From Anaerolineae bacterium (GTDB lineage Bacteria; Chloroflexota; Anaerolineae; Aggregatilineales; Phototrophicaceae), in assembly GCA_023382675.1 (NCBI GenBank), contig JAHDWN010000007.1:30072-94071 (forward strand): a stretch of 64,000 nucleotides of DNA, given 5' to 3'. The notes beneath the pieces are model-generated. The model was not told where the DNA came from, did no database searches, and worked only from the letters and a program-made list of their open reading frames with translations. Shown piece after piece: positions 4,950 to 64,000 of the stretch. The stretch's first letter is position 1, and the number at the start of each line of letters is the position of its first letter. Both the position numbers and the translations under genes were made by a program.

Positions 4950-6047
4950 ATGAGCCGGATCTTCATCAACTATCGCAGGCAGGACAGCGAAGGCTACGTC
5001 GGACGCCTCTACGACCATCTGAGCCAGCAGTTCGATCCGTCGGACATCTTCATGGATGTGGAGGCGATGAAGCCGGGCGTCGATTTCGTCAAAGTCCTGG
5101 AAGACGCCGTCCTCGCCTGCGACGTGTTTATCGCCATCATCGGCCCGCAGTGGCTTGATGTGCAGAACGAAGCGGGGACACGGCGGCTCGATGAAGAGCG
5201 GGATTTTGTCCGCATCGAAATCGAATCGGCGCTCAAACACAACAAGCTCGTCATCCCGGTGCTGGTCGGGCGAGCGGCCATGCCCGGCACGCGCGATCTG
5301 CCGAAAAGCATCGCGGCGCTGGCCCGGCGCAACGCCTTCGAACTCAGTCACCAGCGCTTCGCTTACGACGCCGAACAGCTTGCCCAGACGATCAAGACCG
5401 CGATCGTGCCGGTCAACCCATCGAGTAAACCGCGCGCCAGCAGCGAGACGCTGCGCCGTAAGATGCGCGAACTCAAGAACCTGCGCGATCAGCTTTTCGA
5501 CGCGAGAACCTCGCCGCTGTATGCCTATCGCATCGAGAACCGCTACTTCCCGGTACTCGGCGATGGCAGCCCGGATGCCAACATTCTCTTCATCGGTCAG
5601 GGGCCGGGCGAATACGAAGCCATGCAGGGCATTCCGTTCGTCGGCGCATCCGGTGACGTGCTCGACGAAATGCTGCTCACCATCGGCCTCAAGCGCGAGG
5701 ATACCTACATCACCAATATCATCCACGACCGCACGCCGGACAACCGCGACCCCATTCCGGCTGAAATCGAGTTCTATGCGCCCTACGTGGACAAAGTCAT
5801 CGAGATCATCCAGCCGGGCGTGATCGTGCCGCTCGGCCGCTTCTCGATGGGCTATATTCTGCGCAAGTACGATCTGCCGGAGAAGCGGATGCGTATCGGC
5901 CAGCTTCACGGCAAGCTGCTGCAATCCCAGGCCAAACACGGCAACATCTTCATTCTGCCGATCTATCACCCGGCGATGGTGCTCTACAGCGCCCGGGAAC
6001 GAGACACGCTGCGCCAGGACTTCCAGCAGCTCAAGCCGTTCGTCTAA
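4950..6047 (+). CDS. TIR domain fused to a family-4-like uracil-DNA glycosylase domain lacking Fe-S ligands
   Basis: 365 aa in two parts. Residues 1-150 are a bacterial TIR_2 domain: FINYRRQDSEGYVGRLYDHL, FMDVE at 34-38, then DFVRIEIE, where E90 or E92 fits the catalytic glutamate of NAD-cleaving TIRs. Residues 165-365 have the uracil-DNA glycosylase family 4 fold signature: GQGPG (216-220), GIPFVGASG, TNIIHDRTPDNRDP (255-268) and a YHP motif (339-341). Family 4 enzymes bind a [4Fe-4S] cluster with four cysteines. Aligning by motif, those positions are P189, A192, D260 and Y276, and the only cysteine in the protein is C57 in the TIR part. The usual Glu of GE(A/G)PG is Gln217. The stop codon overlaps that of convergent lysC by three to four bases. 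A DNA-damage or phage-sensing NADase is inferred, not shown. Confidence 0.85.
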   Translation: MSRIFINYRRQDSEGYVGRLYDHLSQQFDPSDIFMDVEAMKPGVDFVKVLEDAVLACDVFIAIIGPQWLDVQNEAGTRRLDEERDFVRIEIESALKHNKLVIPVLVGRAAMPGTRDLPKSIAALARRNAFELSHQRFAYDAEQLAQTIKTAIVPVNPSSKPRASSETLRRKMRELKNLRDQLFDARTSPLYAYRIENRYFPVLGDGSPDANILFIGQGPGEYEAMQGIPFVGASGDVLDEMLLTIGLKREDTYITNIIHDRTPDNRDPIPAEIEFYAPYVDKVIEIIQPGVIVPLGRFSMGYILRKYDLPEKRMRIGQLHGKLLQSQAKHGNIFILPIYHPAMVLYSARERDTLRQDFQQLKPFV

Positions 6048-7471
6048 TCGCCACTCGCCAGCGGGGCCGTCTCCAATGCCAGATCATGCAGCGTGACGAC
6101 CGCGTGTTTCAAGTCGGCCTGATCGATGACGAACGAAATGCTGCATTCGGATGATCCCTGAGCGATGGCGATCACGTTGATGCGATTGTCGCCCATCAGG
6201 CTGAAGACACGCCCGGCGATGCCCGGCGTCCCGCGCATTCCTGCGCCAACCACCGTCACAATCGCCACCTGATCGAGTACGTCAACCGCGTCCACGTCCT
6301 GATGCGCCATCTCCGTGCCCAACTCGCTCTCGATCTCGTGCTTAACTCGATGTGCGCAATCGGCGACGACGACGAAGCAGAAACTCTGCTCGGACGATGA
6401 CTGCGAGATCATCAGGATGTTGCAGCCCGCGCGCGCCGCCGCCAGGAACGTGCGCCCGGCAATGCCCGGCACGCCGATCATGCCGCGTCCGCTGACCGTG
6501 AGCAGGCTGACATCCTTGACAGTGGTCACGGCTTTGACGACCGTATCGACCTGACGGCGCTCGTCGCCGATCAATGTGCCTTCGAAGCTGGGGTTGAATG
6601 TATTGCGCACGCGCAACACCGTGTTCTTGCCGATGATCGGCTGCACCGTTTTGGGATGCAGCACCTTGGCGCCATAGAAAGCCAGCTCGCCGACCTCCTG
6701 GTAGGAGACGTAGGGCAGCACGCGCGCGCGGCTGTCCAGGCGCGGATCGGTCGTCATGACGCCGTCCACGTCCGTCCAGATGATCAGCTCGTCGGCGGCG
6801 GTGGCGGCGGCGAAGATCGCCCCACTGTAATCGCTGCCACCGCGCCCCAGCGTCGTCATGTGGCCGTCGCGGGTCTGGCCGATGAAGCCGGTGATAATGG
6901 GCGTCACGCCGTTCGCGATTTGCGGCAGCAGCCGTTCGTGAACGTGTGCTTCCGTCTCGTACCAGAGCGGGTTGGCGCTGCCGTACTGCTCGTCGGTGAT
7001 CAGGAACTGCCCGGCGTCGTAGGCACGCGCATCGACCCCCTGGTCGCGCAGCACGGCAGCGATGACGCGGGCGCTCAGGCGCTCGCCGTAGGCATAGATC
7101 GAATCAACGATGCGCGGCGTGACCTCGCCCAGAACGTTGACCGCCTGGCAGAGTTCGCCATGCTGCGCGATTAGCGATGCGACTTCGGTTTTGACCGCGT
7201 CACGATTCCTGCCGGGTTTGGTCAGCAGATTGATGACTTCGTCGTGCCGGTCGCGCAGCTTTTGCCCGATGGACAGATAGCCCCACTTGTTGCCGCTGGC
7301 GGCATCCTGGGCGGAATGTATCAGTTGGTCGGTCACGCCGGACATGGCCGAAACGACGGCGATCACCTGGTCGCCGCGTGCCAGTGCATCGCGCACGATC
7401 TCGGTCATACTGCCGATCGCTTCTGGGCTGCCTACAGACGTGCCGCCAAATTTCATCGTAATGAGCGCCAT
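6044..7471 (-). CDS. lysC: Aspartate kinase
   Basis: Phosphorylates aspartate, the first step to lysine, threonine and methionine. The 475-aa product has the kinase signature KFGGTSVG at residues 7-14, a GRGGSDYSGAI segment in the catalytic domain, and two C-terminal ACT domains that usually bind the end-product amino acids (VSGRGMIGVPGIAGRTF and VGAGMRGTPGIAGRVF). There is no fused homoserine dehydrogenase. It is preceded by a leader containing a promoter, a Thr/Met-rich leader peptide and a hairpin with a U-run, which implies attenuation. It converges on the TIR-UDG gene with overlapping stop codons. Confidence 0.95.
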   Translation of the reverse strand: MALITMKFGGTSVGSPEAIGSMTEIVRDALARGDQVIAVVSAMSGVTDQLIHSAQDAASGNKWGYLSIGQKLRDRHDEVINLLTKPGRNRDAVKTEVASLIAQHGELCQAVNVLGEVTPRIVDSIYAYGERLSARVIAAVLRDQGVDARAYDAGQFLITDEQYGSANPLWYETEAHVHERLLPQIANGVTPIITGFIGQTRDGHMTTLGRGGSDYSGAIFAAATAADELIIWTDVDGVMTTDPRLDSRARVLPYVSYQEVGELAFYGAKVLHPKTVQPIIGKNTVLRVRNTFNPSFEGTLIGDERRQVDTVVKAVTTVKDVSLLTVSGRGMIGVPGIAGRTFLAAARAGCNILMISQSSSEQSFCFVVVADCAHRVKHEIESELGTEMAHQDVDAVDVLDQVAIVTVVGAGMRGTPGIAGRVFSLMGDNRINVIAIAQGSSECSISFVIDQADLKHAVVTLHDLALETAPLASGD

Positions 7472-7503: not shown

Positions 7504-7530
7504 AAGCGTGTGGAGGATTTCCACACGCTT
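7504..7530 (-). terminator. Intrinsic terminator (attenuator) in the lysC leader
   Basis: On the minus strand an 11-bp perfect stem (AAGCGTGTGGA / TCCACACGCTT, loop of 5) runs straight into a TTTTTG tract. It lies 33 bases before the lysC start codon and after the leader peptide stop, so it would stop transcription before lysC unless prevented. Confidence 0.75.
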
Positions 7531-7559
7531 GTTACACCCTTCTGATCGCGCCGGTGCGA

Positions 7560-7649
7560 CTATCCCATGCGGAAATACCCTCTGTGTGCCTTCGTGCACA
7601 TAGTGGTCATGGTCATAGTCATACCGGTACCGAATTGCAGCCGCTTCAT
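7560..7649 (-). CDS. Thr/Met-rich leader peptide for lysC attenuation
   Basis: A 29-codon reading frame that starts MKRLQFGTG and carries the run GMTMTMTTMCT: six Thr and five internal Met codons. A ribosome site (AAGGAA) lies about six bases upstream. The peptide sits between a promoter (7681-7709) and an intrinsic terminator (7504-7530) directly before lysC. In the coding run an RNA hairpin TGTGC/GCACA (7585-7600) could form, and its second arm (CACAC) can pair instead with GTGTG of the terminator arm. This is the layout of thr-operon type attenuation: stalling at Thr or Met codons would free the antiterminator. The peptide resembles enterobacterial ThrL in its MKR start and Thr run, but it is not obviously homologous. 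A longer in-frame start at 7775 is less likely because it lies upstream of the promoter. Confidence 0.7.
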   Translation of the reverse strand: MKRLQFGTGMTMTMTTMCTKAHRGYFRMG

Positions 7650-7680
7650 GCGCGTTTCCTTGCAGCAATTACAGGATATA

Positions 7681-7709
7681 ACGATAGCGCGGGGGCGTTG
7701 GAGTGTCAA
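7681..7709 (-). promoter_or_regulatory. Promoter of the lysC leader
   Basis: On the minus strand TTGACA (7704-7709, perfect -35), 17-base spacer, TATCGT (7681-7686, 4 of 6 to the -10 consensus). It would start the transcript about 25 bases before the leader peptide. Confidence 0.6.
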
Positions 7710-31002: not shown

Positions 31003-31377
31003 GTGGATGGGAAGCAAATTCAAACGGTAACTTCGGAAGGACTAACCTATCTGGATGAAAACGGCGATGAGAAGTTCATCGACTTTTCTGCATGTCATGA
31101 AAGGGCGCTCGCAGAGTTCATGGAACCCAACAACCTAAGATACTTCCAAGAGATTAATCGGTATAGCGCAGAACAATTGGAGGAGAGCATTCAGAAACAT
31201 AAAAAGTGGAAAGTGGTAGCTGACAGGAATATTCTAGGGGAGCCTATGGGAACGACTCCGTACATTGAGTTTTACACTGAACCGCCCATTCGTTTCGAAT
31301 TTGCCACACTGGACGAGTACCACAAGACACGATTCTTATTAGAACGGAACGGATGGAGAACTCGTGATCTCACCTGA
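31003..31377 (+). CDS. Hypothetical protein in AT-richer DNA
   Basis: 124 aa, GTG start with GAGGA nine bases upstream. Soluble and charged, no signal or membrane helix, no motif I recognise (TSEGLTYLDENGDEKFIDFS near the start). The coding bases are clearly richer in A+T than the genes on both sides, which suggests a recent arrival. Flanked by non-coding stretches on both sides. Confidence 0.55.
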   Translation: MDGKQIQTVTSEGLTYLDENGDEKFIDFSACHERALAEFMEPNNLRYFQEINRYSAEQLEESIQKHKKWKVVADRNILGEPMGTTPYIEFYTEPPIRFEFATLDEYHKTRFLLERNGWRTRDLT

Positions 31378-62198: not shown

Positions 62199-62273
62199 GG
62201 GCACATCTCCTCAGTTGTGACACGACTTCTCAGCCAGGATAAGTCGATCATGGCGCATCGCACAACGAGAATC

Positions 62274-62301
62274 AAAAAGGCGTGCCCTGGTGAGCACGCC
62301 T
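62274..62301 (-). terminator. Intrinsic terminator of the DEAD-box helicase gene
   Basis: On the minus strand an 8-bp stem (AGGCGTGC / GCACGCCT, loop of 8) followed by a run of five T, about 25 bases past the helicase stop. Confidence 0.75.
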
Positions 62302-62325
62302 CTGTTCATATCTCGCATACGCCTC

Positions 62326-64000
62326 TTAACGCACGCGCTCGCGATAGCCGCGCTTGCGTGGACGCTCATAGCCATCGCCATCACCACGTGGGCGGCGCGG
62401 TGGACGCGACTCCTCATCCGCGACGCGCACGCGCGCAGGCACGCCACGCAGGGTGATGCGGTTGGCATCGCGCAGGATGCGCTCCACATATTCCTCACGC
62501 ACGTCAAAGAAGGCCTGGCGCGCCTCAAGATCGATTGCGCCAATGCTTTTGCCAGGGATATTGGCCTCGCTGGCAACCGCGCCGACGATGTCGCCCGGCT
62601 GGACACCATCCGCGCGACCGGCATCGATCGTCAAGCGCACCATCCCGGCTTCGCGGCCCGTGCGCCGGCGGGTCGGACGGTCATCGAAGCGGTCAAACCG
62701 GTCGCGACGCTCAAACCCATCGCGACGCTCATAACCACCCCGTCGTTCACGGCGTTCGCGCCGCTCATCGTGCGGACGTTCGACGACTTCGTGAACATCA
62801 TCCAGCGGGCGCAGCGCCTCGACCGCACGTGCCATCTGCATCAATGCGGCAGCGATTTCCGTCGGATCAAGACCGTTTTCGGCCAGCCTGGCGATTATCT
62901 CGCGCTCGCGCGCCAGTTCTTCGCTGCCCATCATCGTCTGCAAGCGCTCGATAAAGCGGGTATCCCGAACGGCGAGCACGTCGTCGCGCGCAGGGAGTTT
63001 GCCCCGTTCAATCGGCTGGCGCGTGTAACGTTCGATAGTCTTGAGCAGGCGATGTTCGCGCGGTGTCACCAGGGTAATGGCGACACCCTCACGCCCAGCG
63101 CGACCTGTGCGGCCAATGCGATGCACGTAATCTTCCGGGTCGAAGGGAATATCGAAATTGAAGACGTGTGACACGCTTTCAATGTCGAGGCCGCGCGCCA
63201 TCACATCAGTGGCGACCAGAGTCGTCACCCAACCCTGACGGAAACGGCGCATAATCGTCTCGCGTACGTCCTGTGCCAGATCGCCATGGATGGCTTCGAC
63301 CGGATAGCCGCGCCCAATGAGCGTTTCCGCGAGCGCTGCCGCGCCGAGCTTTGTCCGCGTGAAAATCAGCGCGCTCTTGACATCTTCGACTTCGAGCAGC
63401 CGCATCAAAACTGCTTCTTTGTCGTCCTGGCGCACCATGTAATAGCGCTGCTCGGTCTGCTCGACGGTCAGCGTTTTGCGTTCGATGCGCACGGTCGCCG
63501 GTTCGCGCATATAGCTGCGCGCCAGCCTGAGCACTTCTGTCGGGAACGTCGCCGAAAAAAGCGCCGTCTGTCGCTCGGCAGGTGTTTGATTGAGGATCGT
63601 CTCTACATCTTCCGCGAAGCCCAGGTCGAGCATCCGGTCGGCCTCATCGAGCACAACCGTTTCGACATGGCTAAGGTTGAGCACCCCACGATTCAGCAGG
63701 TCGAGCACGCGCCCCGGCGTCCCGACAACGATCTGCGCGCCTTCGCGCAGCTTCTTGATTTGTCTGGAATAGGCAGAGCCACCATAGATCGGTGCAATGC
63801 GCGCACCGCGATACTTGCCGTACTGCTCGACGGCTTCGGCGACCTGCAAGGCCAGTTCTCGCGTGGGCGTGAGCACAATGCCGCGCACGCCGTCCCCCAT
63901 CAGGTCGAGCCGCTGGAGCATCGGCAGCGCGAATGCTGCCGTCTTGCCCGTCCCGGTCTGCGCCTGCCCCAATACATCCCGCCCATCCAGCAATGACGGA
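62326..64000 (-). CDS. DEAD-box RNA helicase with DbpA-type RNA-binding domain, 5' partial
   Basis: ATP-dependent RNA helicase, cut at its N-terminus by the window edge; codons for PS-LLDGRDVLG run to 64000, so the Q motif lies outside. Motifs seen: AQTGTGKT (I), TPTRELA (Ia), TPGR (Ib), DEAD (II), SAT (III), and HRIGRTGRAGR (VI). The C-terminus has an Arg-rich linker (RRERRERRGGYERRD) and a DbpA/CsdA RNA-binding domain (MVRLTIDAGRADGVQPGDIV). Likely a cold-shock or ribosome-assembly helicase. Confidence 0.93.
   Translation of the reverse strand, partial: PSLLDGRDVLGQAQTGTGKTAAFALPMLQRLDLMGDGVRGIVLTPTRELALQVAEAVEQYGKYRGARIAPIYGGSAYSRQIKKLREGAQIVVGTPGRVLDLLNRGVLNLSHVETVVLDEADRMLDLGFAEDVETILNQTPAERQTALFSATFPTEVLRLARSYMREPATVRIERKTLTVEQTEQRYYMVRQDDKEAVLMRLLEVEDVKSALIFTRTKLGAAALAETLIGRGYPVEAIHGDLAQDVRETIMRRFRQGWVTTLVATDVMARGLDIESVSHVFNFDIPFDPEDYVHRIGRTGRAGREGVAITLVTPREHRLLKTIERYTRQPIERGKLPARDDVLAVRDTRFIERLQTMMGSEELAREREIIARLAENGLDPTEIAAALMQMARAVEALRPLDDVHEVVERPHDERRERRERRGGYERRDGFERRDRFDRFDDRPTRRRTGREAGMVRLTIDAGRADGVQPGDIVGAVASEANIPGKSIGAIDLEARQAFFDVREEYVERILRDANRITLRGVPARVRVADEESRPPRRPRGDGDGYERPRKRGYRERVR

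What the first reader, a model, noticed from the sequence alone, without database searches (positions are those of the whole stretch)
7504..7709. Thr/Met-rich leader peptide and attenuator upstream of aspartate kinase
Seen: promoter TTGACA-17-TATCGT, a 29-codon frame with ribosome site and the run GMTMTMTTMCT, a TGTGC/GCACA hairpin inside it, then an 11-bp terminator stem with U-run 33 bases before lysC. The CACAC arm can pair with GTGTG of the terminator instead. This matches ribosome-mediated attenuation sensing Thr and Met, both products of the pathway. Such control is well known in enterobacteria, not something I recall for this kind of organism.
Basis: partly seen in the sequence, partly recalled or inferred. 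Interest (0 to 1): 0.78.

Follow-up and report, generated by a model that had tools for sequence, protein, structure and literature searches.

The report
Thr/Met leader-peptide attenuator before aspartate kinase
A short Thr- and Met-rich reading frame and a switchable RNA terminator sit in front of the aspartate kinase gene of a Chloroflexota bacterium and are conserved across nearly all of its family, so this poorly studied phylum appears to use ribosome stalling to sense amino-acid shortage, as the enteric bacteria do.

Summary
In detail: promoter, 29-codon Thr/Met-rich frame and 11-bp terminator precede lysC. Named relatives are Anaerolineae, Chloroflexota. Of 89 family lysC upstream regions read, 85 carry such a frame plus terminator, 83 with at least 6 Thr/Met in 12 codons; 6 of 1,700 shuffles reach that. 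The 85 hold 84 different peptides. The antiterminator is not mainly the CACAC arm: the frame's last codons (7582-7566) pair with the terminator's 5' arm and loop (7527-7513), -20.6 against -7.6 kcal/mol. That pairing is species-matched (0 of 20,000 permutations). Spacing fits a ribosome switch: control codons about 18 nt before it, stop codon about 4 nt after. A promoter-like site precedes the leader in 78 of 84. Phe/Tyr-rich leaders precede aroH in 26 of 30 loci, own genome included, so it is one of a set. Best reading: classical ribosome-mediated attenuation sensing Thr, probably Met too, in a phylum where my searches of the held library found no report. No expression data exist here.

The parts
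7681..7709 (-). sigma-70-type promoter TTGACA-17-TATCGT of the lysC leader transcript
   Evidence: a site of at least 9 of 12 lies before the control run in 78 of 84 family members against 125 of 1,680 shuffles
7560..7649 (-). leader peptide frame MKRLQFGTGMTMTMTTMCTKAHRGYFRMG, stop TAG at 7562-7560
   Evidence: Thr/Met frame plus terminator in 85 of 89 family upstream regions
7593..7622 (-). control codons ATG ACT ATG ACC ATG ACC ACT ATG TGC ACG (Met/Thr run, where the ribosome would stall)
   Evidence: 10 Thr/Met in 12 codons, 0 of 2,000 shuffles
7566..7582 (-). antiterminator strand inside the end of the leader frame (codons for RGYFRM)
   Evidence: RNA duplex with 7527-7513, -20.6 kcal/mol; species-matched pairing, 0 of 20,000 permutations
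7513..7527 (-). partner of the antiterminator strand: most of the terminator 5' arm, the loop and the first two bases of the 3' arm
7504..7530 (-). intrinsic terminator, 11-bp stem, loop of 5, followed by a T-rich tail
   Evidence: -17.5 kcal/mol; 6 of 10 consensus stem pairs show two-sided compensatory changes over 54 aligned leaders
6044..7471 (-). lysC, aspartate kinase, the regulated gene (the next long frame, 4950-6047, is on the other strand and converges)

Best explanation
This is a ribosome-mediated transcription attenuator controlling lysC. RNA polymerase starts just downstream of the promoter (about 7674, inferred from the -10 site) and a ribosome translates the 29-codon leader behind it. 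When charged tRNA-Thr (and probably tRNA-Met) is scarce the ribosome stalls in the Met/Thr run at 7622-7593. The following stretch 7582-7566 then stays free and pairs with 7527-7513, which holds most of the terminator's 5' arm and its loop, so the terminator cannot form and lysC is transcribed. When Thr and Met are plentiful the ribosome runs to the stop codon at 7562-7560, covers 7582-7566, the terminator at 7530-7504 folds, and transcription ends before lysC. Shown by sequence: the frame, the two competing helices, their conservation and species-matched pairing, the spacing of control codons and stop codon, and a promoter-like site upstream. Inferred: start site, translation of the frame, stalling, termination and readthrough, and that Met codons are sensed as well as Thr codons.
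For: Frame plus terminator in 85 of 89 family upstream regions with 84 distinct peptides of 85, so composition, not sequence, is kept. At least 6 Thr/Met in 12 codons in 83 of 89 but 6 of 1,700 family shuffles. Antiterminator pairing better with the cognate terminator: -15.95 against -12.04 kcal/mol over 53 distinct terminator cores, 0 of 20,000 permutations; leaders outside the family solve the pairing with unrelated sequence (L147, L150, L151). Stall simulation: RNA from 7594 or 7586 folds into the antiterminator (-26.9 at 7508) while the terminator 3' arm is incomplete; RNA from 7548 (ribosome at stop) forms only the terminator (-18.0). Geometry in the family: last control codon to antiterminator median 18 nt, antiterminator to end of stop median 4 nt. 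Thr codon ACT is 202 of 432 in control runs but 15 of 245 in six long frames of the window. Phe/Tyr leaders with a similar layout before aroH in the same genomes. A T/M leader precedes a hom-lysC operon in another family (L258, coordinates).
Against: No expression data. The pairing evidence is not uniform: against whole terminators the cognate advantage is small (-25.4 against -22.7; on average 35% of foreign terminators pair as well), only 41 of 85 antiterminators beat 95% of shuffled leader tails, and permutations ignore relatedness. In 8 leaders outside the family the spacing differs (medians 11.5 and 18.5 nt), so ribosome coverage at the stop codon is less clear there. With stall points 7586 and 7580 the complete RNA prefers the terminator by about 1-4 kcal/mol, so the switch must be kinetic there. 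A ribosome-site-like motif before a start codon was found in 63 of 85 only. Four family members lack leader and terminator, and no leader was found in 5.4-6 kb upstream in the three checked. The Rfam Thr_leader score on the window is far below its cut-off (20.7 against 55).
Confidence: 0.87

Rival explanations
1. Only threonine is sensed; the Met codons are incidental, or serve as spare start codons inside the leader.
For: Thr outnumbers Met (438 against 207 of 1,020 residues); many leaders have several in-frame start codons; the aspartate kinase is nearest, among solved structures, to 3c1m (that this is the threonine-inhibited M. jannaschii enzyme is recalled).
Against: Met is by far the second residue even when windows are chosen by Thr alone, at least 2 Met in 68 of 85; some leaders have more Met than Thr in the run (for example L082, MMTMGMGT).
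Confidence: 0.35
2. A riboswitch, T-box or protein-binding attenuator whose RNA happens to contain an open frame.
For: Terminator and antiterminator alone would also fit those classes; T-boxes do occur in these genomes, before trpE.
Against: No Rfam family reached its gathering cut-off on L002, and none matched 20 relatives at E up to 1; the conserved part is a Thr/Met reading frame with rapidly changing order, and RNAalifold on 54 leaders finds only the terminator.
Confidence: 0.05
3. The short frame encodes a functional micro-peptide and the terminator belongs to ordinary upstream transcription.
For: Frame and terminator are both real features.
Against: 84 different peptides among 85 with varying residue order; terminator position nearly fixed relative to the frame (stop to stem median 23 nt, range 19-37); leader and terminator are complementary species by species.
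Confidence: 0.03

Closest known systems
E. coli thr operon attenuator (thrL; Rfam RF00506 Thr_leader)
   Same: Thr-rich leader peptide, terminator/antiterminator switch, in front of an aspartate kinase gene (E. coli details recalled)
   Different: Rfam model scores only 20.7 bits (cut-off 55) on the window and nothing at E up to 1 on 20 relatives; second codon type is Met here, Ile in E. coli (recalled); single lysC, not thrABC; Chloroflexota
Other amino-acid leader-peptide attenuators (trp, his, phe, leu, ilv of Proteobacteria, recalled; Actinobacteria, PMC1262725; His leaders of Firmicutes, PMC2965389 and PMC9413887; passages seen)
   Same: Mechanistic class: control codons, terminator and antiterminator arranged for ribosome switching
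   Different: Different phylum, gene and control residues; PMC1262725 states that no conserved RNA element was seen before threonine or methionine operons in Actinobacteria
aroH Phe/Tyr leaders of the same genomes (found here)
   Same: Residue-rich leader, terminator, species-matched pairing
   Different: Phe/Tyr codons, chorismate mutase gene; exact ribosome spacing not measured
T/M leaders before long aspartate kinase genes (813-815 residues from the KFGG motif) of some Bacteroidota and Ignavibacteria (L041, L047, L057, L061, L078)
   Same: Thr/Met-containing short frame, terminator, aspartate kinase gene
   Different: Long, presumably bifunctional gene (recalled from its length); homology of the leaders not tested, may be convergent; may be described in papers not held

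Membership tests
ribosome-mediated transcription attenuator (leader-peptide type) | short leader frame rich in codons for a product of the controlled pathway, conserved in relatives | tested here: met
   85 of 89 family upstream regions, 83 at the strict cut; 6 of 1,700 shuffles at that cut
ribosome-mediated transcription attenuator (leader-peptide type) | intrinsic terminator between leader and gene | tested here: met
   two-sided compensations in 6 of 10 stem pairs
ribosome-mediated transcription attenuator (leader-peptide type) | competing antiterminator, supported by covariation | tested here: met
   weaker by other measures
ribosome-mediated transcription attenuator (leader-peptide type) | spacing such that a stalled ribosome frees, and a ribosome at the stop codon covers, the antiterminator strand | tested here: met
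   family medians 18 nt and 4 nt; footprint size recalled; 8 leaders outside the family differ (11.5 and 18.5 nt)
ribosome-mediated transcription attenuator (leader-peptide type) | transcription start upstream of the leader | tested here: inconclusive
   promoter-like site in 78 of 84; no RNA data
ribosome-mediated transcription attenuator (leader-peptide type) | expression responds to amino-acid starvation through leader translation | not testable with these tools
   needs bench work
Rfam RF00506 Thr_leader | score at or above the gathering cut-off of 55 bits | tested here: not met
   20.7 bits on the window; no match at E up to 1 on 20 relatives
T-box riboswitch RF00230 | match to the family model at its cut-off | tested here: not met
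   none on L002; four trpE loci in the same scan do match

The most novel reading that the evidence does not exclude
Anaerolineae (Chloroflexota) run a leader-peptide attenuation regulon of several operons: Thr+Met for lysC or hom-lysC, Phe+Tyr for aroH and possibly DAHP synthase, and in some families His for hisG. It would have arisen independently of the enterobacterial attenuators, with the lysC leader acting as a dual Thr/Met sensor through a Thr codon (ACT) that is rare in the window's long frames.
Probability: 0.5. Interest if true: 0.72.

Novelty: new member of a known kind. Interest (0 to 1): 0.62.

Why it matters
Textbook attenuation was worked out in enterobacteria (recalled); [quoted passage not shown] A family-wide system in Chloroflexota would widen the range of the mechanism, give a Thr+Met sensor for the entry enzyme of the aspartate pathway, and imply close transcription-translation coupling in a phylum known largely from metagenomes. 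Its layout gives a simple way to find more in uncultured phyla.

Tried and rejected
CACAC arm as main antiterminator: rejected, -7.6 against -20.6 kcal/mol. Protector hairpin between control codons and antiterminator as a family feature: weak. The first swap test, against whole terminators, had little power because the arms are alike; repeated on the terminator core. RNA model R1 over 301 genomes of the phylum matched 32 at E up to 0.01; apart from the own genome and one family member (E below 1e-20) the best is 9e-7. Its second full-length window hit at 62393-62267 is a plain terminator behind a helicase-like gene (gene name recalled). Thr/Met leader before hom: 1 of 30 against 1 of 600 shuffles, not supported, apart from the hom-lysC operon of L258, which is not among the 30. 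Thr/Met or Lys leader before the second aspartate kinase of this genome (L263): none. Leader upstream in three of the four leaderless family members: none. Trp leader before trpE: none seen; T-boxes instead. Loci L203-L220 and the leuA loci L377-L406 were fetched but not analysed. In the class sample I read 48 of the 113 genomes with a match at E up to 1e-60, picked mostly by rank with some skipped, and 13 from other families of the order; G005 was left out of the family set because its match starts at residue 196.

Full report
What is there. The window belongs to a 6.4-Mb genome; the named records with the closest lysC (52-87% identity) are Anaerolineae metagenome-assembled genomes (L032-L036). 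lysC is on the minus strand at 7471-6044. Upstream, on the same strand, lie TTGACA-17-TATCGT (7709-7681) and an 11-bp terminator (7530-7504), and between them a 29-codon frame at 7649-7560, MKRLQFGTGMTMTMTTMCTKAHRGYFRMG. Ten Thr/Met in 12 codons is not reached in 2,000 dinucleotide shuffles. The protein is an aspartate kinase: over the cut-off of the NCBIfam subfamily model asp_kinases, below those of the equivalog models shown; closest solved structure 3c1m. A second aspartate kinase (35% identical) lies elsewhere in the genome without such a leader.

Conservation. lysC orthologues were found in 90 of 98 family genomes at E up to 1e-110. I read the upstream regions of 89 (29 loci, 60). Eighty-five have a Thr/Met frame followed by a terminator at the expected place; 83 have at least 6 Thr/Met in 12 codons, and L012 and L097 pass only the looser cut. 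The four without (L022, L029, L129, L135) have no terminator; in L022 and L029 the preceding open frame ends 42 and 11 nt before lysC. Shuffles of the upstream regions reach 6 of 12 in 6 of 1,700 cases. The peptides are 84 different ones of 85. In the 33 nt of the Thr-richest stretch the +1 frame holds a stop in 77 of 85 and the Thr/Met frame has the least varied composition, though the stretch was chosen by Thr content. The stop-to-terminator distance is 19-37 nt. A promoter-like site of at least 9 of 12 precedes the run in 78 of 84, against 125 of 1,680 shuffles (one leader dropped because too little sequence lay upstream).

Mechanism. That duplex is -7.6 kcal/mol. The end of the frame, 7582-7566, pairs with 7527-7513 at -20.6, against -17.5 for the terminator hairpin. 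Folding the RNA left free 3' of a ribosome stalled in the control run gives this antiterminator while the terminator's 3' arm is incomplete; with free RNA from 7594 it wins on complete RNA too, from 7586 and 7580 the terminator is then preferred by about 1-4 kcal/mol. With a ribosome at the stop codon only the terminator forms. Across 53 distinct terminator cores (from 93 leaders, 85 of the family and 8 outside) the leader tail pairs best with its own terminator: -15.95 against -12.04, 0 of 20,000 permutations; family only, 45 cores, -15.72 against -12.68, 0 of 20,000. Different sequence solutions include GGGGTC:GACCCC (L007), GGAGAGTT:AACTCTCC (L027) and GCCGGTTGCTTC:GGAGCAACCGGC (L150) (sequences). 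In a small set of 7 cores from the phylum sample the advantage is -16.69 against -13.55, 53 of 10,000 permutations. Against: whole-terminator swaps discriminate little, and only 41 of 85 beat 95% of shuffled tails (mean 16% of shuffles as good). Family median spacings (18 nt from last control codon to antiterminator, 4 nt from antiterminator to end of stop) fit a ribosome footprint as commonly given (recalled); in the 8 outside leaders they are 11.5 and 18.5 nt. ACT makes up 202 of 432 Thr codons in control runs but 15 of 245 in six long frames of the window; the first figure is family-wide, the second from one genome.

Which amino acids. In windows chosen by Thr count alone, Thr is 438 and Met 207 of 1,020 residues; at least 2 Met in 68 of 85, at least 2 Ile in 7 of 85. 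Thr and Met are both products of the pathway that aspartate kinase opens (recalled), so dual sensing is plausible but inferred.

Spread. Outside the family, 7 of 61 lysC upstream regions from other families of the order and class pass the strict test (L147, L150, L151, L157, L171, L184, L185) and L187 the looser one; I find the L184 terminator doubtful. L035 (52% identical, family not determined) also has frame and terminator. In a phylum sample 48 of 201 genomes had an orthologue at E up to 1e-90; of 29 upstream regions read 5 pass at 6 of 12, against 2 of 580 shuffles, all 5 in one family (f34) of the same class and partly the same genomes as in the class sample. In L258 the leader precedes hom, with lysC behind it, in another family of the order. 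So the system is nearly fixed in this family and patchy elsewhere.

Sister systems. Weak hits of the RNA model led to Phe/Tyr-rich leaders before aroH. Of the 30 aroH loci read (37 of 41 genomes had a match) 26 have at least 5 Phe/Tyr in 12 codons, against 17 of 600 shuffles; own genome L292 is one. None of the 30 has a Thr/Met frame at the strict cut, and 3 of 89 lysC upstream regions have a Phe/Tyr one. Cognate pairing again exceeds foreign pairing (-15.17 against -12.11, 22 cores, 0 of 10,000). His runs precede hisG in 3 of 25 loci (L342, L344, L350), against 7 of 500 shuffles. trpE instead has T-boxes in the four loci scanned, own genome included.

Known or new. Thr_leader scores 20.7 of the 55 bits needed on the window; 20 relatives give no Rfam match at E up to 1; loci L002, L292, L293, L342, L344, L350, L258, L150, L041 and L047 give none at gathering cut-offs. 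Paper searches listed nothing that I could recognise, by title, abstract start or the passages opened, as a leader-peptide attenuator in Chloroflexota. I saw passages of PMC2965389, PMC9413887, PMC1262725, PMC4833913, PMC8632094, PMC4959651 and PMC6497799 (the last two use 'leader peptide' in other senses), and listings otherwise. Two key surveys are not held, so the absence claim covers those searches of the held library only. I file it as a new member of the leader-peptide attenuator class and not as a member of Rfam Thr_leader.

Noticed in passing
L292 (own genome G000:C15, upstream of aroH at 31200), L271-L300, L251-L261: Phe/Tyr-rich leader peptide plus terminator before the chorismate mutase gene aroH (26 of 30 loci with at least 5 Phe/Tyr in 12 codons), with species-matched pairing: a sister attenuator; L292 and L293 match no Rfam family at its cut-off.
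   Followed up: partly
L342, L344, L350 (upstream of hisG, other families of the order): Short frames with four to five adjacent His codons before a terminator upstream of hisG: likely His leader attenuators in other Anaerolineae families (3 of 25 loci).
   Followed up: partly
L252 (G023:C37, about 145588-145730): Tyr-containing short frame and terminator before a DAHP-synthase-like gene (gene name recalled, frame read by eye).
   Followed up: no
L041, L047, L057, L061, L078 (Bacteroidota, Ignavibacteria): Thr/Met-containing short frames with terminators before long aspartate kinase genes; L062 and L071 have Thr/Ile runs without a recognised terminator.
   Followed up: partly
L369, L360, L373, L364 (upstream of trpE; L369 is the own genome): T-box leaders over the Rfam cut-off before trpE, so the same genomes mix T-boxes and leader peptides.
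   Followed up: yes
L262 (G016:C65, 181-321): Short frame MSNQYHTMRPMSISPRHDRRRVLRLG and terminator before a methionyl-tRNA-synthetase-like gene (name recalled).
   Followed up: no
window 62267-62393, minus strand: Weak hit of the leader model is an ordinary terminator behind a helicase-like gene (name recalled).
   Followed up: yes
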